This document shows, one piece after another, positions 132 to 36,119 of a stretch of DNA of 36,368 bases (positions are counted from its first letter, which is position 1; each line of letters opens with the position of its first letter). The stretch lies in contig JANXCW010000018.1 of NCBI GenBank assembly GCA_025059775.1, positions 1-36,368 of the forward strand, in the 5' to 3' direction. The stretch is from Armatimonadota bacterium (GTDB taxonomy: Bacteria; Sysuimicrobiota; Sysuimicrobiia; Sysuimicrobiales; Sysuimicrobiaceae). Under the pieces are notes generated by a model that saw only the letters and a list, made by a program, of their open reading frames with translations, was not told the DNA's origin and ran no database searches. Both the position numbers and the translations under genes were made by a program.

Positions 132-947
132 ATGGCACGGGAGGAGAGGTGGCTGGAGGGGATGGTGGCCCTGGTGACGGGCGCGGGCCGTGGGGAAGAC
201 GGCGGAGGCGGAGCCGGCATCTCCCGGTACCTGGCTCGCCAGGGTGCCCGGGTGGCGGTGAACGACCTCACGGAGGAATATGCGCAGGCCACCGTGGATC
301 AGATTCGCAGCAGGGGCGGAGAGGCGTGGGGCATTGTGGGGGATGTCTCGGACCCCGCGGAAGCCCAGCGGATGGTGGACGCCGTGGTGCGCCATTTCGG
401 CCGGCTGGACATCCTGGTGAACAACGCGGCCATCGGTGGCCTGATCCCCGCGGTGGAACGGCTCCCGGACGAGATCTGGCACCGTCAGGTGGCGGTGGAT
501 CTCTCGGGCCCCTTCTATATGAGCCGGGCTGCCCTACGGCACATGATCCCACAAGGATTTGGTCGCATCGTGAACATCGCTTCCCTCGCCGCGGTCCGCA
601 CGGGATTCGTGAGCGGCTCCACGTACACCACCGCGAAAACGGGGCTTTTGGGACTGACCCGGCAGATGGCCTTTGAGGTGGCGCAGTTTGGGATCACGGT
701 GAACGCGCTTATGCCCACCGGCATCCGGAACCCCCGGATCCTGCGGATGAGACCGGAATGGTTGCAGGCGGAGGGGAGACTGGGCCCCCTGGATCCCGAG
801 GAAGAGATCGGGAAACTCGTGGCCTTCCTCTCCCGGCGGGATGTGTCCTTCATTTCCGGAGCGGCTATCCCCCTGGACCGAGGGGTAGGGAGTGCCCTGG
901 GGAACTTCGAGGCCTACAAGCAGAGGACTGGGAAGGACGCGGGCTAG
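132..947 (+). CDS. Short-chain dehydrogenase/reductase (SDR), paralog 1 of 3
   Basis: NAD(P)-dependent oxidoreductase of the classical SDR family, 271 residues, cytoplasmic. The Rossmann start is TGAGRGEDGGGGAGI (residues 16-30). This glycine-rich loop is about four residues longer than the usual TGxxxGIG, a feature shared by all three paralogs here. Asp45 at the end of strand beta-2 (AVND) suggests NAD rather than NADP. NNAA (97-100), Ser151, Tyr165 and Lys169 give the NNAG-type motif and the catalytic triad; the active-site Asn of the tetrad is replaced by Asp123 (VDL for VNL). The start ATG at 132 has a strong ribosome site (GAGGAGGGGG) just before it. It is first of three tandem SDR genes and most like the third, including near-identical DNA around the EEYAQATVDQIR segment. 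The substrate is unknown; a secondary alcohol or ketone of the pathway encoded downstream is likely. Confidence 0.9.
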   Translation: MAREERWLEGMVALVTGAGRGEDGGGGAGISRYLARQGARVAVNDLTEEYAQATVDQIRSRGGEAWGIVGDVSDPAEAQRMVDAVVRHFGRLDILVNNAAIGGLIPAVERLPDEIWHRQVAVDLSGPFYMSRAALRHMIPQGFGRIVNIASLAAVRTGFVSGSTYTTAKTGLLGLTRQMAFEVAQFGITVNALMPTGIRNPRILRMRPEWLQAEGRLGPLDPEEEIGKLVAFLSRRDVSFISGAAIPLDRGVGSALGNFEAYKQRTGKDAG

Positions 948-960
948 AGAGGAGGGAGGG

Positions 961-1782
961 ATGCAGAGGGTACGGTTGTGCGACCTCAGCGGGATGGTGG
1001 CCCTGGTGACGGGCGCCGGGGGCGGCTCCAAGGGGGGAGTCGGGCCCGTGATCGCCCGGTCCCTAGCCCAGGCGGGTGCCCGGGTGGCGGTGAACGATCG
1101 GACTGCGGAGTGGGCGGAAGCCACGGTGCAGGAGCTGCGGGGGGAGGGGCTAGAGGCGGAGGCGTTCCCCGCGGACGTGGCGGATGTCCGGCAGGCGGAC
1201 CAGCTGGTGGAGCGGGTGGTGGAACGGTTCGGGCAGCTGGACGTCCTCGTGAACAAGGCGGAGTACCACGCGAGTGGCCAGCGGGCGGACGAGGTGTCGG
1301 ACGAGGAGTGGGAGAGAAGCCTCGCGGTGAACGTGCATGCTCCGTTTTACCTGAGCCGGGCCGCGGTGCGGCACATGCGAGCTCGGAGGTTCGGCCGGAT
1401 CATCAACGTCTCCAACATCTCCGCCATCCGCACGAGCCTGCTGCACGGGGTGCCGTACGTAGCTACAAAGGAGGCTCTGTACGGGCTCACCCGACACTTG
1501 GCCATCGAGGTGGCCCAGCACGGCATCACGGTGAACGCCATCCTGCCAGGGTTCATCCTCACACCGAAGCTCTTGGAGGACTGGCCGGAGGAGCGGCAGA
1601 GCGCGGTGGCGGCCACGATTCCCGCGCTCCGAGCTGGGACCCCCGAGGAGGTGGCGGCCCTGGTGGTGTTCCTGGCAAGTCGGGAGGCGGGCTACATCAC
1701 GGGGGCGGCTATCCCCATCGATGGAGCGGTATCCGTGGTGCCCGGAGGAGGCGGGGGGCGCCGGGAGACCGCGTTCGTGTAG
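961..1782 (+). CDS. SDR family protein, paralog 2 of 3, with altered active site
   Basis: A 273-residue SDR-fold protein. ATG 961 is chosen over upstream in-frame ATGs because GAGGAGGGAGGG sits directly before it and the preceding SDR ends at 947. The Rossmann motif TGAGGGSKGGVG (17-28) keeps the long glycine loop of its neighbours, and Asp46 again suggests NAD. Two conserved positions are changed. The NNAG-type motif reads NKAE (98-101). The position matching the catalytic Ser of the paralogs (14 residues before the Tyr) is Asn152, although Ser151 and Ser154 lie beside it. Tyr166, Lys170 and Asn124 are present. The protein may therefore be a weak or specialised enzyme, or a non-catalytic partner of one of the adjacent SDRs, since SDRs often form tetramers. 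The C-terminus is glycine/arginine-rich (GGGGRR) and differs from those of the two paralogs. Confidence 0.87.
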   Translation: MQRVRLCDLSGMVALVTGAGGGSKGGVGPVIARSLAQAGARVAVNDRTAEWAEATVQELRGEGLEAEAFPADVADVRQADQLVERVVERFGQLDVLVNKAEYHASGQRADEVSDEEWERSLAVNVHAPFYLSRAAVRHMRARRFGRIINVSNISAIRTSLLHGVPYVATKEALYGLTRHLAIEVAQHGITVNAILPGFILTPKLLEDWPEERQSAVAATIPALRAGTPEEVAALVVFLASREAGYITGAAIPIDGAVSVVPGGGGGRRETAFV

Positions 1783-1792
1783 AGGTCGTGGC

Positions 1793-2611
1793 ATGGGCCG
1801 GTTGGAAGGTATGGTGGCCCTGGTCACGGGTGCGGGTGGCGGAGCGCTGGGCGGCGGGGGAGCGGGCATCGCGCGGACCTTGGCGGAGGAAGGCGCCCGG
1901 GTGGCCGTGAACGATCTCCAGGAGGAATATGCGCAGGCCACGGTGGACCAGATCCGCGGCAGGGGCCGGGAAGCGTGGCCGGTGGTGGGGGATGTCTCGG
2001 ACCCCAGCCAGGCCCGCCGGATGGTGGAGTCCGTGGTGGATCGGTGGGGGCGGCTGGACATCCTGGTGAACAATGCGGCGCGCCTGGGGCGTTCCCCCGC
2101 GGTGGAGCGGATGCCGGACGAGGAGTGGTGGAGCTACTTGCGGGTGAACCTCTCGGGACCCTTCTACATGAGCCGGGCTGCCCTCCCCCACATGGTCCGA
2201 CAGGGGTTCGGCCGCATCGTCAACCTCTCCTCCCTGGCGGCCCTTCGGGCCAGCTTGAACGGGGGAGCCTGCTACACCTCCTCCAAGCGGGGTCTTCTTG
2301 GCCTCACACGGCAGCTCGCCGCGGAATTCTACCCGTACGGAATCACGGTGAACGCCGTTCTCCCCGCGGGGATCCTCACGGGCCGCATGCGCACCCAGAT
2401 GCGGAAAGAGGAGGTGGAGGCCCGGCTGGCAAGTCGACGGATTGCCCTCCCCGAGGACATCGGAGCGCTCGTGGCCTTCCTCGCGAGCCGGGAGGCAGGA
2501 CTGATCACCGCCAGCGTGATCGTGATCCCCGGAGTGGCCGTCTGCCCCCTGGGAGACTACGCCCAGTACCGGGCCGTGGCCCAGGCCATCGGGAAGGACA
2601 TCGGGGCGTGA
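1793..2611 (+). CDS. Short-chain dehydrogenase/reductase (SDR), paralog 3 of 3
   Basis: A 272-residue classical SDR with a complete catalytic set. The cofactor loop is TGAGGGALGGGGAGI (12-26), Asp41 suggests NAD, NNAA is at 93-96, and Asn119, Ser147, Tyr161 and Lys165 form the tetrad. ATG 1793 aligns with the start of paralog 1 and lies 10 bases after the previous stop, with only a weak ribosome site (AGAGGT). An earlier in-frame ATG at 1721 would overlap paralog 2 by 60 bases and is not supported by alignment. The C-terminus (LGDYAQYRAVAQAIGKDIGA) resembles that of paralog 1 (LGNFEAYKQRTGKDAG) but not paralog 2, so 1 and 3 are the closer pair. The substrate is not predictable. It precedes two solute-binding protein genes in the same run. 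Confidence 0.9.
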   Translation: MGRLEGMVALVTGAGGGALGGGGAGIARTLAEEGARVAVNDLQEEYAQATVDQIRGRGREAWPVVGDVSDPSQARRMVESVVDRWGRLDILVNNAARLGRSPAVERMPDEEWWSYLRVNLSGPFYMSRAALPHMVRQGFGRIVNLSSLAALRASLNGGACYTSSKRGLLGLTRQLAAEFYPYGITVNAVLPAGILTGRMRTQMRKEEVEARLASRRIALPEDIGALVAFLASREAGLITASVIVIPGVAVCPLGDYAQYRAVAQAIGKDIGA

Positions 2612-4183: not shown

Positions 4184-5710
4184 ATGACGGAGAGGAAGAC
4201 GGCAAAGCTTCGATTCCAACGGGTTGGCGCGGGAGCGGCATTGCTGCTCGCCCTGCTCCTCGTGGGCGGCGCGGGGGCCGCGGCCCCTTCCCGGGGAGGC
4301 CTCCTTCGGGTCGTGGATGAAGCGCCGGGAGGGCCCTTCGGAGTTCCCTGGGAAATTGTGGGCATCTCCATCTGCGCGGCCGTACCGGCCCTGGAGCCCC
4401 TGTTGTGGATGGACCGCGGGGGCCGGGTCATGCCGAAGCTCGGGGAGCGATGGGAGATCAGCCCGGACCGACGGGTCATCACCCTGCACCTGCGCAAGGG
4501 GGTGAAGTTCCACGACGGAACCGATCTCACCGCCCAGGCGGTACAGTTCAACCTGCAGAAGCAGATGGAGCGGGGGCTGATCCCCTACTTCGAGGCGGTG
4601 GAGGCGGTGGATCGGGACACGGTGCGGATCCGGTTAAAAGGATGGGACAACCGGGTGCTGGTGACCTTGGCGGGGACTCCCGCAACCGTTATCTCGCCCG
4701 CGGCCCTGGAGCGGTTGGGGTTGGAACGGGCCCGGTGGCACCCGGTGGGAACGGGCCCCTTCCAACTGGAGCGGTATGAACGGGACGCCTACGTGCGCTA
4801 TCGGAGGTTCGGGCAGTACTGGGACCGGGGCAAGCCCTACCTGGATGGGGTGGAGATCCGGTTCATCCGAGACCCCCAAACCCTGAAGGCGGCTCTCCTG
4901 GCGGGACAGATCGACGTGACGGGGCTCCAGGATCTGGCGCTCATCGCGGAGCTGCGGGGGGCGGGGTTTGAGCTGATGGCTGCGGACAACGCCATCCTAA
5001 CCCTGATTCCCGATAGCGCCAACGCGGATTCCCCGTTTGCCGATCGCCGGGTCCGGGAGGCCCTGAGCTATGCCATCGACCGGGAAGCCATTGCCCGGGG
5101 GCTGGGGTTCGGGCTGCTGCAGCCCACAAACCAGCTGGCGTTCCCCGAGCAATCCGCGTACCTGCGGGATTACCGGGGTCCCACGTACAACCCGCAGCGG
5201 GCGCGGGAACTGCTGGCACAGGCAGGATACCCGAACGGGTTCAGCACCCGGCTTATCCCGGCGCCGTTCATCCCGCGGGACCACGTGCTGGCCATTCAAC
5301 GGTACCTGCGGGAGGTGGGGATCCACGCGGAGGTGGAGTTCCCGGAGGCCCCGAGATACCGGGAGTACTCCACGCGGGGCTGGCGGGGGATCCTGGTACA
5401 CTTCCTTGGATTCTTCGCGAACTACAACAGCTTCGTGGGCTTCTACTTCGTGAATCCTCCGGAGGTGTGGGCGAGCATGGCGCGGCCCGCGGCTCTACTT
5501 CAGGTGTTCGCGGAATCCGTCGCCACCCTGCGGCCGGAGGGGTACAAGACGCAGCAGCTGCATCGGATCCTCTTGCAGGAGCACCTGCACGTGACGGTGT
5601 GGCGCTCGCCGCGGGCATACGTGAAGCGCCCCCATGTCCAGAACACCAACCACATGAAGTGGGTCACCTGGCCGTGGTGGACACCCGGAGAGGCTTGGAT
5701 CCGGCGGTAA
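4184..5710 (+). CDS. ABC transporter solute-binding protein, family 5 (DppA-like), copy 2
   Basis: A 508-residue paralog of the preceding gene. The signal peptide has a basic n-region (KTAKLRFQR), the hydrophobic stretch ALLLALLLVGG and cleavage probably near AGAAA; no lipobox cysteine. ATG 4184 is preceded by GAGAGGGAGGG. The two copies share long blocks, such as YLDGVEIRFIRDPQTL and PTYNPQRARELLAQAGYPNG. At DNA level 5180-5242 matches 3631-3693 at 60 of 63 bases, including third positions, far closer than the rest of the two genes. That suggests a recent exchange (gene conversion) inside an older duplication. Two binding proteins may feed one permease with two related ligands. Confidence 0.92.
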   Translation: MTERKTAKLRFQRVGAGAALLLALLLVGGAGAAAPSRGGLLRVVDEAPGGPFGVPWEIVGISICAAVPALEPLLWMDRGGRVMPKLGERWEISPDRRVITLHLRKGVKFHDGTDLTAQAVQFNLQKQMERGLIPYFEAVEAVDRDTVRIRLKGWDNRVLVTLAGTPATVISPAALERLGLERARWHPVGTGPFQLERYERDAYVRYRRFGQYWDRGKPYLDGVEIRFIRDPQTLKAALLAGQIDVTGLQDLALIAELRGAGFELMAADNAILTLIPDSANADSPFADRRVREALSYAIDREAIARGLGFGLLQPTNQLAFPEQSAYLRDYRGPTYNPQRARELLAQAGYPNGFSTRLIPAPFIPRDHVLAIQRYLREVGIHAEVEFPEAPRYREYSTRGWRGILVHFLGFFANYNSFVGFYFVNPPEVWASMARPAALLQVFAESVATLRPEGYKTQQLHRILLQEHLHVTVWRSPRAYVKRPHVQNTNHMKWVTWPWWTPGEAWIRR

Positions 5711-5723
5711 GGAGGGAAGCAGG

Positions 5724-6314
5724 ATGCGGGACTGGCGGTTGGAGATCGTGGACCCCACGGGAGGGAGGTTGTGGCAAGAGGGAGAGGCGGCAACTGCCTC
5801 CCTTTCCCAGGTCCGGCTCGACCCAGAGCGGCTGCGGGGGCTGCGGTGCGGATTGCTGGACAACTCCAAGCCGGGCTCGGAGCGTTTGTTGCGGGAACTC
5901 GCCCGACGGCTGGCGGACCGGTACGGGGTCCGGATCGGGCCCTTCGTGGTCAAGGGATTCCCGTCCGTACCTGCCACAGAGGAGGAGCTGGGGCGGGTGG
6001 CGGATGGCGCGGACCTGGTCCTTACCGGGGTGGGGGACTGAGGGTCCTGCAGCGCGTGCAGTGTGCACGACGCCATCAACCTCATCGAGCGGGGGATCCC
6101 GGCGGTGGCCGTGATCACAGAGCCCTTCGTGCCTACGGTGCGGGCCATCCAGGCCACTCGGAAGGTGCAGGAGCCGCGGTTCGTGGTGATGCCGCATCCC
6201 CTGGCGAATCTCACCCCGGAGGAGGCCGCGGAACGCGCGGAGCAGCTCCTGGATCCCGTGGCGGAGCGCCTGCTGCGCGCGCTGGGACAGCTCCGGGTAG
6301 CGCAGAGCGGGTGA
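5724..6314 (+). CDS. UGSC-family selenoprotein (in-frame TGA = selenocysteine 106)
   Basis: A 196-residue protein read through TGA 6039-6041. The frame before the TGA (MRDWRLEIVDPTGG to DLVLTGVGD) and after it (GSCSACSVHDAINLIERGIP to LRVAQSG, stop TGA 6312-6314) is the same. The join reads GVGD-Sec-GSC, residues 102-109, which is the diagnostic motif of the UGSC (seleno)protein family. Sec106 and Cys109 form a redox-type UxxC pair, and Cys112 lies next to it. Family landmarks after the motif include VHDA, ERGIPAV, ITEPF and PHPLANLTPEE. A SECIS-like hairpin starts 10 bases after the TGA. TGA is an ordinary stop for many genes here, so the code is not reassigned. ATG 5724 has a GGAGGG ribosome site. 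The family's reaction is not established as far as I know; thiol/selenol redox or a reductase step is inferred from the motif. Split annotation as two small ORFs would be an error. Confidence 0.9.
6052..6073 (+). promoter_or_regulatory. Candidate bacterial SECIS hairpin
   Basis: The RNA GCG-CGUGC / loop AGUGU / GCACG-(bulged A)-CGC forms an 8-bp stem with a 5-nt loop inside the coding sequence. The loop begins 19 bases after the TGA and has G as its second base. Known bacterial SECIS elements lie just downstream of the Sec UGA and have a small apical loop about 16-37 bases away, with G near the loop start, so position and form fit. SelB would bind here. The fold was worked out by eye. A competing small stem (CTGCA 6047-6051 with TGCAG 6057-6061) exists. 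Confidence 0.65.
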
Positions 6315-6323
6315 GGGACACGG

Positions 6324-7391
6324 ATGCTGCCGGAGTACGCGGAGCTGGTGGAGTACCTCATGGAGCATGGGTGTACGGATGGGCTTCCCGTCCTCCCTCC
6401 CCTGCGGCCCCTTGTGGACCGTATGGTCGAGGCCTCGGGCCGTCGGGGAGAGGAAGTCCTGGGCGTTGTTCCACCCCGGAACACGCCGGCCACGGTAGAG
6501 CTCGTGGCGGCGAACGCGGTGATGGCGGGGTGCAAGCCGGAGTACATGCCCGTGGTGTTGGCGGCGGTAGAGGCCATCCTGGACCCCGCCTTTAACCTTC
6601 AGGCGGTGGCCTGCACCACGGCAGGGCCGGGCCTCCTGGTGATCGTGAACGGCCCTGTCCGGCACCGGATCGGAATCAACTGTCGGGAACGGCTGTTCGG
6701 TCCTGGAAACCGGGCCAACGCCACCATCGGACGGGTATTGCGGCTCCTGCTCATCAACCTGGGAGGATCCCTGGAGACGGACCGGTCCACCTTTGGGCAC
6801 CCCGGGCAGTACACGTACTGCATCGGAGAGGATGAGGAGGGCAGTCCCTGGGAGCCCTTCCACGTGGATCGGGGATATGCCGCCGAGGACAGCGTGGTCA
6901 CCGTGATGGCCTGCCGGGGCCCCAGTACCGTGGGATACTTCGACCCGGACGGAGGGGGAGAACGGCTCCTGCGGGCCATCGCGGACGCCATGTCTCCCAT
7001 TCCCGCCTTCGGCCCCGTAGGCTATACGGAGTACGTGCTCCTCATCGGTCCCGAGCACCGGGATCTGCTCAGCCGGGAGGGGTGGACAAAAGCGGGGATC
7101 CGCCAGTTCCTCCAGGCCCACGCCCGGCGCCGGGCTCAGGACTTCCGGGCCATCGGGGACAACCGCAAGGGCGGGTACGCGTGGGGGGAGCCCCGGCGGT
7201 GGGTGGAGGAGGTGGACCCGGACGACCGGTGGGTGCACCTCATCCGGGATCCCTCGGACGTACACATCCTCAGCGCGGGAGGAGCGGCTGGAGCCTTCTC
7301 CGTCCTGATCGGGGTCATGCCCCGGCGGCTCAGCACCTGGCAGAGCCGCCGGGTGCAGAAAGCAGGGATCGCGATCCCCACGGGCGAATAG
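6324..7391 (+). CDS. Conserved UGSC-associated protein of unknown function
   Basis: A 355-residue, apparently cytoplasmic protein with no signal or membrane segment, starting 9 bases after the UGSC selenoprotein gene. I recognise the family from memory as a frequent neighbour of UGSC genes; it usually starts with a WTDGLPVVPP-like motif and carries NAVMAGC, IVNGP, IGIN, FGPGNRANATIGR and SPWEPFHV blocks, all of which are visible here. In this copy the first motif is HGCTDGLPVLPP, with Cys17 where I remember Trp. Other cysteines are in MAGCKPEY, VACTTAGPG, GINCRERL, YTYCIGED and MACRGPS. Tight linkage to a selenol/thiol protein and the cysteine content suggest the two act as one enzyme, comparable in outline to the multi-subunit selenoenzyme reductases, but this is inference. 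The reaction is unknown. Confidence 0.8.
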   Translation: MLPEYAELVEYLMEHGCTDGLPVLPPLRPLVDRMVEASGRRGEEVLGVVPPRNTPATVELVAANAVMAGCKPEYMPVVLAAVEAILDPAFNLQAVACTTAGPGLLVIVNGPVRHRIGINCRERLFGPGNRANATIGRVLRLLLINLGGSLETDRSTFGHPGQYTYCIGEDEEGSPWEPFHVDRGYAAEDSVVTVMACRGPSTVGYFDPDGGGERLLRAIADAMSPIPAFGPVGYTEYVLLIGPEHRDLLSREGWTKAGIRQFLQAHARRRAQDFRAIGDNRKGGYAWGEPRRWVEEVDPDDRWVHLIRDPSDVHILSAGGAAGAFSVLIGVMPRRLSTWQSRRVQKAGIAIPTGE

Positions 7392-7421: not shown

Positions 7422-9755
7422 ATGACGGGAGAGTGGACGTGGCTCGGGCGCCAGGTACGCCGCATCGAGGATCCCAAGCTCCTGCAGGGAAAGGGAGCTT
7501 ATCTGGATGACCTGAACCCGGCTGGGGTCCTCCACGTGGCCCTGGTCCGCAGCCTCCATGCCCACGCGCGGATCGTGGAGGTGGACACCTCGGAGGCCCT
7601 GCGCCAGCCGGGGGTCGTGGCGGTTCTCCTCGCTTCGGATCTCGGGATCCAGGACGTCCCAGTGATGGGGCCGCCTGGAACCCAGCCCGTCCCGCATCCC
7701 GTCCTGGCCCGGGAGGTGGTCCGGTACGTGGGGCAGCCCGTGGCCGCGGTGCTCGCGGAGAGCCGGGCTGCGGCGGAGGACGGGGCCGCGGCGGTCCGGG
7801 TGGCCTACGAGCCCCTGGAGGCGGTGGTGGATCCCCTGGAGGCTCTGGAAGGACGTCGGTTGGTGCATCCGCGTCTGGGGGACAACGTAGGCCTCCGGCT
7901 GAACATCCGACAGGGGGAAGTAGAGGAGGCATTCCGGAACGCCGCCCGGGTGATCCGCCAGCGGATGTGGAACCAGCGGCTGGCGGCAGCCCCCATGGAG
8001 CCGCGCGGCGTGCTAGCGGAGTGGGACGGAGTCCGGGAGCAGCTCACCGTATGGGCCTCCACGCAGCTGCCCCACAGTCTGCGGGACACCCTGGCGCGGG
8101 CCCTGAAACTGGATGCAACTCAGGTCCGGGTGATCACGCCGGACGTAGGTGGCGGGTTCGGCCTCAAACTCAACGCCTGCCCCGAGGACGTTCTGGTGGC
8201 ACACCTCGCACAGCGGTTGGGACGGCCGGTGAAGTGGGTAGAGCGGCGCAGCGAGAGTATGGTGGCGAGCGCCCACGGCCGGAGCCAGCTGTGTGACCTG
8301 GAGCTCGCCTGTGACCCGCGGGCGCGGGTGACCGGACTGCGGGCCCGCATCGTGGGGGACCTAGGGGCCTATGCGGTCACCACCACCCTGGTCATCGCCG
8401 GGATGACGGCCCGGATGCTCACGGGACCCTATCGCATCCCCGCGGTGGACATCGAGGTGGTAGGGGTATACACGAACAAGACACCCTCCGGGGCGTACCG
8501 GGGCGCGGGTCGTCCGGAGGCCACGTATTACCTGGAGCGAGGGATGGATCTCGTGGCCCGGGAGTTCGGCCTGGACCCCGCGGAGGTCCGGCGCCGCAAC
8601 CTCCTCCCCAAGGGCGCCTTCCCCTATCGCACGCCCACGGGCCTGCGGTACGACAGCGGCGACTACCACCAAGCCCTGCGGGTGCTTCTGGAGAAGGCGG
8701 AATATCCAAAGCTGCGGGCGGAGCAGGAGCGGGCTCGCCAGGAGGGACGGTACCTGGGGATCGGCCTCTCCACGTACGTGGAGATCTGTGCCTTCGGCTG
8801 GGAGTGGGCGAAGGTCCGCTTGAACGCGGACGGCACCGCCGTGGTGTTCACAGGAACCTCTCCCCACGGCCAGGGGGACGCCACGGGATTTGCCCAGATC
8901 ACGGCCGAGCGGCTGGGGATCGATCCCTACAAGGTGCGGGTGGTCCACGGGGACACCCTGGCCATCCCTGTGGGAGGAGGCACGGGAGGAAGCCGGACCC
9001 TGGTGGTGGGAGGGTCCGCTGTCCTGAAGGCCGCGGAGAAGGTGCGGCGCAAGCTCCTCCGCATCGCCGCGCATCTCCTGGAGGCCTCTGTGGGGGATCT
9101 GGAGCTGCAGGGAGGACGGGTATTCGTGCGGGGCGTCCCCGACCGATCCCTTCCCATCGCGGAGGTGGCGGCCGCGGCGTATCAGCCCATGCGCCTCCCG
9201 AAGGGGATGGAGCCCGGCCTGGAGGAATCGGCTACCTTCTCCATTCCCTCCAACACCTTCCCGTTCGGAGCCCACCTGTGCGTGGTGGAGGTGGACCGGG
9301 AGACGGGGGAGGTGTCCGTCCGCCGGTACGTGGCGGTAGATGATGTGGGCGTGATGATCAATCCGCTGCTCGTGGCGGGCCAGATCCAGGGAGGGATCGT
9401 TCAGGCGCTCGGGCAGGCCCTGCTGGAGGAGGTGGCGTACGGGTCGGACGGACAGCCCCTCGTCTCGAGCCTAGCGGACTACTCCATGCCCCGGGCCACG
9501 CACGTCCCGCCTCTGGAGCTGTACCACACCGTCACCCCTTCGCCCACAAATCCCCTGGGTGCCAAGGGGGTGGGGGAGTCCGGGACCATCGGAGGGACCC
9601 CGGCCTTCGTGAACGCGGTGGTGGATGCCTTGGCCCCCTTTGGGGTGCGGCACCTGGACATGCCCCTCCGACCAGAGAAGCTGTGGCGCATCCTCCAGCA
9701 GGCCTCCGTGGAGGGCCGGATGCCCGCCGTGGTGGGGTCCCCGAAGGGAACATGA
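7422..9755 (+). CDS. CoxL/xanthine dehydrogenase-family molybdenum-binding subunit (form II)
   Basis: Large molybdenum-cofactor subunit of the xanthine oxidase family, 777 residues, the usual CoxL length. The N-terminal hammerhead domain (VRRIEDPKLLQGKGAYLDD) is followed by the two cofactor domains. Visible motifs are GGGFGLKLNACPED, the active-site loop AYRGAGR (residues 358-364) and GVGESGTIGGTPA with the catalytic Glu719. The AYRGAGR loop is that of form-II enzymes; true CO dehydrogenase has a Cys-containing AYxCSFR loop, so CO oxidation is unlikely. These enzymes normally hydroxylate aldehydes or aromatic/heterocyclic carbons as a complex with a FAD subunit (CoxM) and a 2Fe-2S subunit (CoxS). 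Neither is found in this window, so the partners must be elsewhere or the subunit uses another acceptor. ATG 7422 has a GGAGAAGGGAG ribosome site. Confidence 0.93.
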   Translation: MTGEWTWLGRQVRRIEDPKLLQGKGAYLDDLNPAGVLHVALVRSLHAHARIVEVDTSEALRQPGVVAVLLASDLGIQDVPVMGPPGTQPVPHPVLAREVVRYVGQPVAAVLAESRAAAEDGAAAVRVAYEPLEAVVDPLEALEGRRLVHPRLGDNVGLRLNIRQGEVEEAFRNAARVIRQRMWNQRLAAAPMEPRGVLAEWDGVREQLTVWASTQLPHSLRDTLARALKLDATQVRVITPDVGGGFGLKLNACPEDVLVAHLAQRLGRPVKWVERRSESMVASAHGRSQLCDLELACDPRARVTGLRARIVGDLGAYAVTTTLVIAGMTARMLTGPYRIPAVDIEVVGVYTNKTPSGAYRGAGRPEATYYLERGMDLVAREFGLDPAEVRRRNLLPKGAFPYRTPTGLRYDSGDYHQALRVLLEKAEYPKLRAEQERARQEGRYLGIGLSTYVEICAFGWEWAKVRLNADGTAVVFTGTSPHGQGDATGFAQITAERLGIDPYKVRVVHGDTLAIPVGGGTGGSRTLVVGGSAVLKAAEKVRRKLLRIAAHLLEASVGDLELQGGRVFVRGVPDRSLPIAEVAAAAYQPMRLPKGMEPGLEESATFSIPSNTFPFGAHLCVVEVDRETGEVSVRRYVAVDDVGVMINPLLVAGQIQGGIVQALGQALLEEVAYGSDGQPLVSSLADYSMPRATHVPPLELYHTVTPSPTNPLGAKGVGESGTIGGTPAFVNAVVDALAPFGVRHLDMPLRPEKLWRILQQASVEGRMPAVVGSPKGT

Positions 9756-34643: not shown

Positions 34644-36056
34644 CTAGCGGCGGGCAGCCGAGGGATGCTCGCGGGCTAGAGGACTGATGGGGGCGGGAGC
34701 CACCGTGGCCCGGATCCGGACCTGCCGGTGCGGCTCCAGCCAGGGCCGACTCTTTGCACCACCCTCGGGCTCCCCCCAGACCACGGTGACCCGCTTGCCA
34801 GGCTCGGCGAACTCCGGGGACACCACGGCCAGGGAGAGCAGGGCCCGCTCATTCCAGGAGTACGCCACGTACGTGGAGACCCCCACCACGGTCTCGCGCT
34901 CGTCGAGCACCGCGTCGTACTGCCAGACCGCGTACGTGGGAAGGGGGAGATCCAGGTACCGGGCGGGGAGCCCAGGGCGGAGGAAGCTGGTGAGGGTCTC
35001 CGCCACGTCCTCTGCATCCCACACCAGGGTGACCTTGCGGCGGTGGGGCTGCAGGATCGTGCGGGCCAAAGCCTCCCGGCCCACAAACTCGTGGTCCAAG
35101 TGGATAAGGTGCCCGTAGCCGAGTTCCCAAGGGGTGAGGTAATAGTCCTCGATGTTCGGGGAGTAGAAGCTCCCCCCCAGGGACCACGTGGCCTCCCCGC
35201 TGGAGGCTGGAAGCCACTCCCGGAACGGCCGCAGTTCCTCCCCCGTGTAGATGGCAGGCAGCACCCGGGGGATCCATCCGAGATCCACCCCGGTGGTGAA
35301 GTACGCGAGGGTCCCCACCTGCCGCAAACCAAAGGCCTTTCCCGCTTCCAGGATGGCCTCCCGGACGTTCGAGCCTTCCTCCCAGGGGCCGAAGAGCTCG
35401 AAGCCGGGGCCACCTGCCATGGTGTGACGCAGGGCCCAGACCGTGCATCCCGCAATGGGGAGGGGGGCGATCTGGAACGGCCGGAGCTCCGGCATCGGGC
35501 CGCGGTTCAGGCGCTCCAAGAGGGCGGGCGCCCTCGGCCCCTCCACCTGGTACCGGTAGACGGTGCGTCTGCCGGTGGGGTTCCGGGTGTAGCTCTCATC
35601 CCGCTCCACCGTGACCTTCCAACCCCCCATCTGGGCGTGGAACTCCACCCAGTTGTGGGGTGCCGCTCCTCCGACCAGGACCACCTCTTCCGGATGGAGG
35701 CAGTACAGCACTCCATCCCCGATGACGTACCCACGAGGGTTGCAGGCCACGAGGTGGCGGGCCTTGCCCGGGCCGAAGGTGGCAAAGCGGTTCACGCCCA
35801 GGTAGGAGAACAGGCGGATGGCGTCTGGGCCTCGCACGTACGTCATGGTCATGTGATAGGACTGGTCGTACAGAGCCACGGTCTCGCGCCAGGCCTGCTG
35901 CTCCTCTCTCCAGTCGGTGAACTCCGGAGGCACGAGATGCGGGGGATGGCGTCGCGCTAGCCACTGGCCCTTGGGATTGCCGTAGAGGTGGTCCACAAGG
36001 TTCGGAACGGAGTCCAACAGCTCCTGAAGGGTACGTGGTTCCCTCCGCTCCCCCAT
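34644..36056 (-). CDS. Tetrahydrofolate-dependent aryl methyl ether O-demethylase (LigM/DesA family)
   Basis: GcvT-fold protein, 470 residues, close to LigM. LigM and DesA transfer the O-methyl group of vanillate, 3-O-methylgallate or syringate to tetrahydrofolate. Segments agreeing with LigM as I remember it are PPEFTDWREEQQAWR, LYDQSYHM, GYVIGDGVLY, ILEAGKAFGLRQVG, GWIPRVLPAIYTGEEL, REWLPASS, GGSFYSPNIEDYYLTPWELGYG and VVWGEPEGG. This rules out an ordinary glycine-cleavage T protein. ATG 36056 is preceded on the - strand by GGGGAGG; the longer start at 36107 lies upstream of the likely -10 box. CCTCCCCGGGGAGG (36065-36078) is a 14-base palindrome covering that ribosome site. The product of demethylating vanillate, protocatechuate, is also the product of PobA, so both feed one pathway. 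Confidence 0.9.
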   Translation of the reverse strand: MGERREPRTLQELLDSVPNLVDHLYGNPKGQWLARRHPPHLVPPEFTDWREEQQAWRETVALYDQSYHMTMTYVRGPDAIRLFSYLGVNRFATFGPGKARHLVACNPRGYVIGDGVLYCLHPEEVVLVGGAAPHNWVEFHAQMGGWKVTVERDESYTRNPTGRRTVYRYQVEGPRAPALLERLNRGPMPELRPFQIAPLPIAGCTVWALRHTMAGGPGFELFGPWEEGSNVREAILEAGKAFGLRQVGTLAYFTTGVDLGWIPRVLPAIYTGEELRPFREWLPASSGEATWSLGGSFYSPNIEDYYLTPWELGYGHLIHLDHEFVGREALARTILQPHRRKVTLVWDAEDVAETLTSFLRPGLPARYLDLPLPTYAVWQYDAVLDERETVVGVSTYVAYSWNERALLSLAVVSPEFAEPGKRVTVVWGEPEGGAKSRPWLEPHRQVRIRATVAPAPISPLAREHPSAARR

Positions 36057-36090
36057 CGCGCGGGCCTCCCCGGGGAGGATTGCGGTTCCT

Positions 36091-36119
36091 AGCATAACAC
36101 GCAGCACAGGAAGGTACCA
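36091..36119 (-). promoter_or_regulatory. Possible promoter of the LigM-like gene
   Basis: On the - strand TATGCT (complement of 36091-36096) is a fair -10 box, with TGGTAC (complement of 36114-36119) 17 bases upstream as a weak -35. The leader to ATG 36056 would be about 28 bases and include the ribosome site. Confidence 0.3.

What the first reader, a model, noticed from the sequence alone, without database searches (positions are those of the whole stretch)
5724..6314. Hidden selenoprotein: UGSC family with in-frame TGA and SECIS-like hairpin
The two short ORFs at 5724-6041 and 6063-6314 are in one frame. Reading TGA 6039-6041 as selenocysteine gives GVGD-U-GSC, the diagnostic UGSC motif, and joins two halves that both look like that family. 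A hairpin with an 8-bp stem and 5-nt loop AGUGU lies 10-32 bases after the TGA, where bacterial SECIS elements sit. TGA is a normal stop elsewhere in the window, so recoding must be local. A selenoprotein in an apparently thermophilic lineage is notable.
Basis: partly seen in the sequence, partly recalled or inferred. Interest (0 to 1): 0.88.

Follow-up and report, generated by a model that had tools for sequence, protein, structure and literature searches.

The report
UGSC selenoprotein with conserved partner gene
The gene does contain a UGA codon read as the rare amino acid selenocysteine, so two apparent small genes are one protein of a known but uncharacterised family, and it sits beside a conserved, unnamed partner gene that suggests a two-part, thioredoxin-fed reducing enzyme.

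Summary
Observation confirmed, and the selenoprotein reading is right. Read through TGA 6039-6041, 5724-6314 is a full-length UGSC family protein (Pfam PF24696 161.7 bits, NCBIfam NF041046 126.7 against a cut-off of 125). Neither half scores like the whole. The genome has selA-selB-tRNA-Sec as a cluster and a selD that itself carries an in-frame TGA. It holds six UGSC genes, all with TGA at this codon; a genus mate has five, all TGA. Fifty-five homologues in other genomes, mostly Actinomycetota, have Cys there. The SECIS is supported by comparison: loop AGUGU in 12 of 15 Sec loci against 0 of 55 Cys loci, with two fully compensated base-pair changes.

The family itself is known (2008) and NCBI already names it, so this is a new member of a known kind. 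What I add: the next gene (6324-7391, no Pfam or NCBIfam family) is a conserved partner, adjacent or fused in 79 of 82 UGSC loci and on plasmids of unrelated bacteria and haloarchaea. UGSC aligns, Sec on Sec, with the C-terminal selenocysteine domain of glycine reductase GrdB. Thioredoxin/thioredoxin reductase genes flank several modules. I infer a two-subunit, thioredoxin-fed reductase of unknown substrate. Thermophily was not shown.

The parts
5709..5716 (+). Shine-Dalgarno AAGGAGGG of the UGSC gene
   Evidence: sequence
5724..6314 (+). UGSC family selenoprotein gene, 196 aa, ATG start, TGA stop
   Evidence: PF24696 161.7 bits and NF041046 126.7 bits for the read-through protein; dN/dS 0.27 before and 0.39 after the TGA against the genus-mate orthologue
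6039..6041 (+). UGA codon read as selenocysteine (Sec106 in D-U-G-S-C)
   Evidence: TGA in all 15 UGSC genes found in this phylum, Cys in 55 homologues elsewhere
6052..6073 (+). bacterial SECIS hairpin: 5' arm 6052-6059, loop AGUGU 6060-6064, 3' arm 6065-6073 with bulged A 6070
   Evidence: fits the bSECIS model quoted in PMC13188914
6324..7391 (+). conserved partner protein, 355 aa, no Pfam or NCBIfam family; homologous to the C-terminal part of fused UGSC proteins
132..2611 (+). context: three short-chain dehydrogenases in tandem
   Evidence: PF00106/PF13561
2656..5710 (+). context: two family-5 solute-binding proteins of an oligopeptide-type ABC transporter
   Evidence: PF00496
7422..9755 (+). 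context: large subunit of a molybdenum hydroxylase (xanthine dehydrogenase / CO dehydrogenase type)
   Evidence: PF02738, PF20256, PF01315
10912..12754 (+). context: two permeases of the oligopeptide-type ABC transporter
   Evidence: PF00528

Best explanation
5724-6314 is one gene for a UGSC family selenoprotein. SelB, bound to Sec-tRNA, recognises the hairpin at 6052-6073 and inserts selenocysteine at UGA 6039-6041 (near certain by comparison, about 0.97; not shown by protein data). The protein is most likely the redox subunit of a two-subunit enzyme whose other subunit is encoded by 6324-7391. By homology of its Sec site to the C-terminal domain of GrdB, and from thioredoxin and thioredoxin reductase genes beside related modules, I infer that the Sec/Cys pair (U106, C109, here also C112) attacks a substrate held by the partner, is left oxidised, and is reset by thioredoxin: a reductive step in uptake and breakdown of a small organic compound brought in by the adjacent ABC transporter (inferred, about 0.5; substrate unknown).
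For: Family: PF24696 and NF041046; NF041046 is over its cut-off only when read through. Machinery: selA (4.4e-144), tRNA-Sec (79.5 bits; ARAGORN anticodon tca) and selB in one cluster on C4; selD with an in-frame TGA. Conservation: six UGSC genes in this genome, five in the genus mate, four in another family, all TGA; Cys in 55 homologues; D-[U/C]-G-S-C invariant in 59 sequences. Selection on both sides of the TGA, and the 33 bases after it identical to the genus mate. SECIS: AGUGU at +18 to +22 in 12 of 15 Sec against 0 of 55 Cys loci; stem of 5 or more pairs in that register 12 of 15 against 7 of 55; two pairs changed on both sides, 100% paired, slid controls at most 55%. An independent Sec homologue on a Paracoccus plasmid has the same loop at the same spacing, a different stem, and selB annotated nearby. 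Partner in 79 of 82 loci. GrdB profile match, Sec on Sec, E 2.9e-6. trxB beside the module on three plasmids and in 5 of 80 genome loci. grd clusters carry trxA and trxB (PMC6778437).
Against: No protein-level evidence of Sec. The hairpin alone is unremarkable in this GC-rich DNA. No thioredoxin genes were seen near this copy. GrdB's N-terminal domain is not in this genome and the partner shows no similarity to GrdB or to any solved protein by sequence, so the chemistry is an analogy. The third Cys of UxxCxxC is present here but replaced in many homologues. Cys forms occur in Actinomycetota, most of which I would expect to be aerobic, unlike the anaerobes that use classical glycine reductase.
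Confidence: 0.85

Rival explanations
1. It is a selenoprotein, but a general thiol/selenol oxidoreductase or antioxidant (as the 2008 paper assumed from a presumed thioredoxin fold), not a substrate-cleaving reductase with a partner subunit.
For: Most UxxC selenoproteins are thiol oxidoreductases; PMC2398784 suggests a Trx-like fold.
Against: The AlphaFold2 model (pLDDT 88) alternates strand and helix five times in a Rossmann-like way with Sec at the start of a helix, not the thioredoxin topology. A nearly always present partner and catabolic/transport surroundings.
Confidence: 0.3
2. The TGA is a real stop; 5724-6041 is a truncated gene or a decaying pseudogene.
For: TGA is the usual stop in this genome.
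Against: Same TGA kept in 15 genes of several genera, selection on both halves, sel genes present, no start signal for the second ORF.
Confidence: 0.01
3. Sequencing or assembly error turned TGC/TGT into TGA.
For: Fragmented assembly in 59 contigs.
Against: Independent genome G036 and five paralogues have the same TGA.
Confidence: 0.005
4. TGA is decoded as another amino acid (code change or general readthrough).
For: None beyond the open frame.
Against: TGA ends 18 of 28 genes in the window; homologues have Cys at the column; full Sec machinery.
Confidence: 0.005

Closest known systems
UGSC-containing selenoprotein family (PF24696, NF041046; PMC2398784)
   Same: Whole length, UGSC motif, Sec/Cys exchange, fusion to an unknown domain already noted in 2008
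   Different: Nothing that sets it apart; this copy is unfused, has UxxCxxC, and belongs to a genome with six copies
GrdB / GrdF selenoprotein B of glycine/sarcosine reductase (TIGR01917, NF040794, PF07355)
   Same: Last ~95 residues align with Sec on Sec; UxxCxxC; trxA/trxB neighbourhood in some loci
   Different: GrdB's ~350-residue N-terminal domain is absent; a different partner protein with no detectable similarity to it is present instead
D-proline reductase PrdB
   Same: UxxC selenoprotein subunit said to be a GrdB homologue (PMC13188914)
   Different: Not compared directly here; no Prd genes examined

Membership tests
UGSC family (PF24696 / NF041046) | Curated score cut-off | tested here: met
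   161.7 against 25 bits; 126.7 against 125 bits
UGSC family (PF24696 / NF041046) | [U/C]GSC motif after a conserved Asp | tested here: met
   DUGSC 105-109, invariant in 59 sequences
Bacterial selenoprotein | In-frame UGA with Sec/Cys homologue pairs | tested here: met
Bacterial selenoprotein | SECIS: loop 3-9 nt with G in first two positions, 16-37 nt from UGA, MFE at most -7.5 | tested here: met
   AGUGU, 18 nt, -11.3 kcal/mol; model from PMC13188914
Bacterial selenoprotein | selA, selB, selC, selD in the genome | tested here: met
   selB identified from its sequence and place between selA and tRNA-Sec, not by a family search
Bacterial selenoprotein | Selenium in the protein | not testable with these tools
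   needs mass spectrometry
GrdB (selenoprotein B) | PF07355 N-terminal domain | tested here: not met
   no match in this genome; UGSC aligns only to the C-terminal part
GrdB (selenoprotein B) | UxxCxxC motif | tested here: met
   U106-C109-C112 in this copy; third Cys not kept across the family
GrdB (selenoprotein B) | Second subunit (GrdE/G/I) and GrdA | not tested
   partner is unrelated to GrdB; GrdE and GrdA were not searched

The most novel reading that the evidence does not exclude
UGSC plus its unnamed partner is a distinct two-subunit class of selenol/thiol reductase, spread across bacteria and haloarchaea and multiplied to six copies in this genome, each copy serving a different small-molecule substrate.
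Probability: 0.45. Interest if true: 0.72.

Novelty: new member of a known kind. Interest (0 to 1): 0.45.

Why it matters
UGSC has been one of the commoner selenoprotein families in marine metagenomes since 2008 and I found no paper giving it a function. The nearly invariable partner, the GrdB-like Sec site and the thioredoxin neighbours turn 'unknown redox protein' into a testable two-subunit reductase. The covariation, in which the amino acids at 112 and 115 change together (Cys/His, Ala/Ala) to keep an RNA stem, is a clear case of a SECIS shaping a protein.

Tried and rejected
First genome-contig scan with the single protein found no relative; the alignment did. Rfam gave only chance hits at the hairpin. 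Overall folding energy after the codon does not separate Sec from Cys loci (-16.8 against -16.7 kcal/mol, p 0.70; the best-hairpin score differs modestly, p 0.005), so energy alone was dropped in favour of register, loop and covariation. PDB fold searches gave no trustworthy match: UGSC best TM about 0.4; partner hits to fumarase and cyclic-amide hydrolases at TM 0.2-0.3 were rejected. Partner against GrdB: none. The first neighbour clustering was spoiled by shadow ORFs in GC-rich DNA and redone with codon-position GC; a few shadow ORFs remain. The tree has long branches and an unsettled bootstrap; it asks for four Sec/Cys changes, which I do not rely on. Identity of the phylum was not determined: one order making up the whole phylum would suit Sysuimicrobiota (PMC11604079), a guess only.

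Full report
Observation. The two ORFs, their common frame, TGA 6039-6041 and the hairpin are as described. ORF 1 has a Shine-Dalgarno; the 'start' of ORF 2 has none and lies in the hairpin loop. The read-through protein is full-length UGSC (PF24696 positions 1-170 of 172), while each half matches only its own part. The gene's own terminal stop is also TGA, so recoding is local.

Sec machinery. The assembly (2.35 Mb, 99.2% complete) has selA at C4:86949-88034, selB (669 aa, recognised from its sequence) and tRNA-Sec at C4:84896-84984 in one cluster, and selD at C8:32726-33649 with one in-frame TGA. In the order, SelA is common (36 of 43 genomes match) and UGSC rare (6 of 43); three genomes of a sister genus that are 94-95% complete lack both. 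One UGSC-bearing genome, G032 (68% complete), shows only weak SelA-like matches, probably for incompleteness.

Conservation. Six UGSC genes in this genome, five in the genus mate, four in another family of the order; all have TGA at this codon. The orthologue on G036:C12 is 77% identical, with dN/dS 0.27 before and 0.39 after the TGA and no change in the 33 bases after it. The Cys-motif scan of named genomes gave 80 loci, mostly Actinomycetota; 55 were read and have TGY at the codon. That scan used a Cys pattern, so it could not show Sec forms.

SECIS. With loop position counted after the TGA, AGUGU lies at +18 to +22 in 12 of 15 Sec loci and 0 of 55 Cys loci; a stem of at least 5 pairs in register is in 12 of 15 against 7 of 55. 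On 11 distinct sequences the five-pair stem is 100% paired with two pairs changed on both sides (U-A/G-C and G-C/C-G); sliding the arms gives at most 54.5% and no double changes. The compensating codons are TGC..CAC (Cys..His) and GCC..GCC (Ala..Ala), so the protein changes at 112 and 115 in step with the RNA. The counts include close relatives; the number of independent events is small. The three paralogues L015, L016 and L032 lack this stem but have a second 8-bp hairpin with a GUG loop at +33, which also fits the published model (PMC13188914). A Paracoccus ferrooxidans plasmid carries a UGSC gene annotated as two hypothetical proteins, split at TGA, with the AGUGU loop at the same spacing on a different stem, and selB about 4 kb away (PF24696 125.6 bits).

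Partner. 6324-7391 begins ten bases after the UGSC stop. None of 50 members matches a Pfam or NCBIfam family convincingly outside the UGSC part of fused members, and there is no solved relative. Homologues occur in 79 of 82 loci that have a UGSC match, adjacent or, in L013, L015, L016 and L029, fused in one frame; the 2008 paper reported a fused 'Unknown_1' domain (PMC2398784), which may be the same. On plasmids the pair is found together in Natrinema, Halorientalis, Halalkalicoccus, Roseovarius, Acidovorax, Variovorax, Embleya and Arthrobacter. Twenty-one of its residues are invariant in 50 sequences and Cys70 is kept in 48. All six copies in this genome have a partner (one cut by a contig end).

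Chemistry by analogy. NCBIfam GrdF/GrdB models hit the UGSC C-terminal half at E 1.5e-4 to 3.4e-4. GrdB genes in this order carry TGA in 'AT-U-GSCNRCGATISKEIERLGIPV', and profile comparison puts Sec on Sec at E 2.9e-6 over 87 columns, HH probability 88%. trxB lies in or beside the module on Variovorax SRS16, Roseovarius THAF8 and Arthrobacter (with trxA) plasmids. In the genome loci (898 kb in all), 5 carry a TrxB-like and 4 a thioredoxin gene; I did not compute a background rate, but one or two trxB per genome would predict well under one. grd operons also carry trxA and trxB (PMC6778437). Transporter, SDR, CoA-transferase and amidohydrolase neighbours point to breakdown of small organic molecules; the substrate is unknown.

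Structure. The UGSC model is confident (pLDDT 88.4, pTM 0.81) with alternating strands and helices and Sec106 just before helix 107-122; Cys stood in for Sec. The partner model is fair (84.5). Neither has a trustworthy match in the PDB.

Verdict. The new content is the partner, the GrdB link, the thioredoxin link and the SECIS covariation. Shown: sequence, conservation, covariation, machinery, linkage. Inferred: Sec insertion in the cell, complex with the partner, thioredoxin as reductant, reductive reaction. Not established: substrate, thermophily, taxonomy.

Noticed in passing
G000:C8:32726-33649 (L042): selD matches its family across one in-frame TGA, so selenophosphate synthetase is probably itself a selenoprotein.
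   Followed up: partly
L036 (G000:C3:16461-18667): Two fused UGSC-partner genes in tandem with identical bases after the TGA and a different, more distant SECIS-like hairpin (GUG loop at +33).
   Followed up: partly
L138-L142 (other genomes of the order): GrdB genes also carry an in-frame TGA in a UGSC/UGTC motif, so they are likely selenoproteins too.
   Followed up: partly
L147:7390-7959 (Paracoccus ferrooxidans pFER4): A Sec-form UGSC gene is annotated as two hypothetical proteins, with selB about 4 kb away and an IS element beyond it.
   Followed up: yes
L037:2336-3259 and L145:1817-2713: DUF6282 genes lie near UGSC modules both in this genome and on a Halorientalis plasmid.
   Followed up: no
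window 34644-36107: A protein that looks from its sequence like the glycine-cleavage T / aminomethyltransferase type clusters with proteins found near UGSC in L049, L054, L063 and L102, although 28 kb away here.
   Followed up: no
window 7422-9755: Molybdenum hydroxylase large subunit without evident medium and small subunits next to it.
   Followed up: no
window 132-2611: Three short-chain dehydrogenases in tandem with unusually glycine-rich cofactor loops.
   Followed up: no
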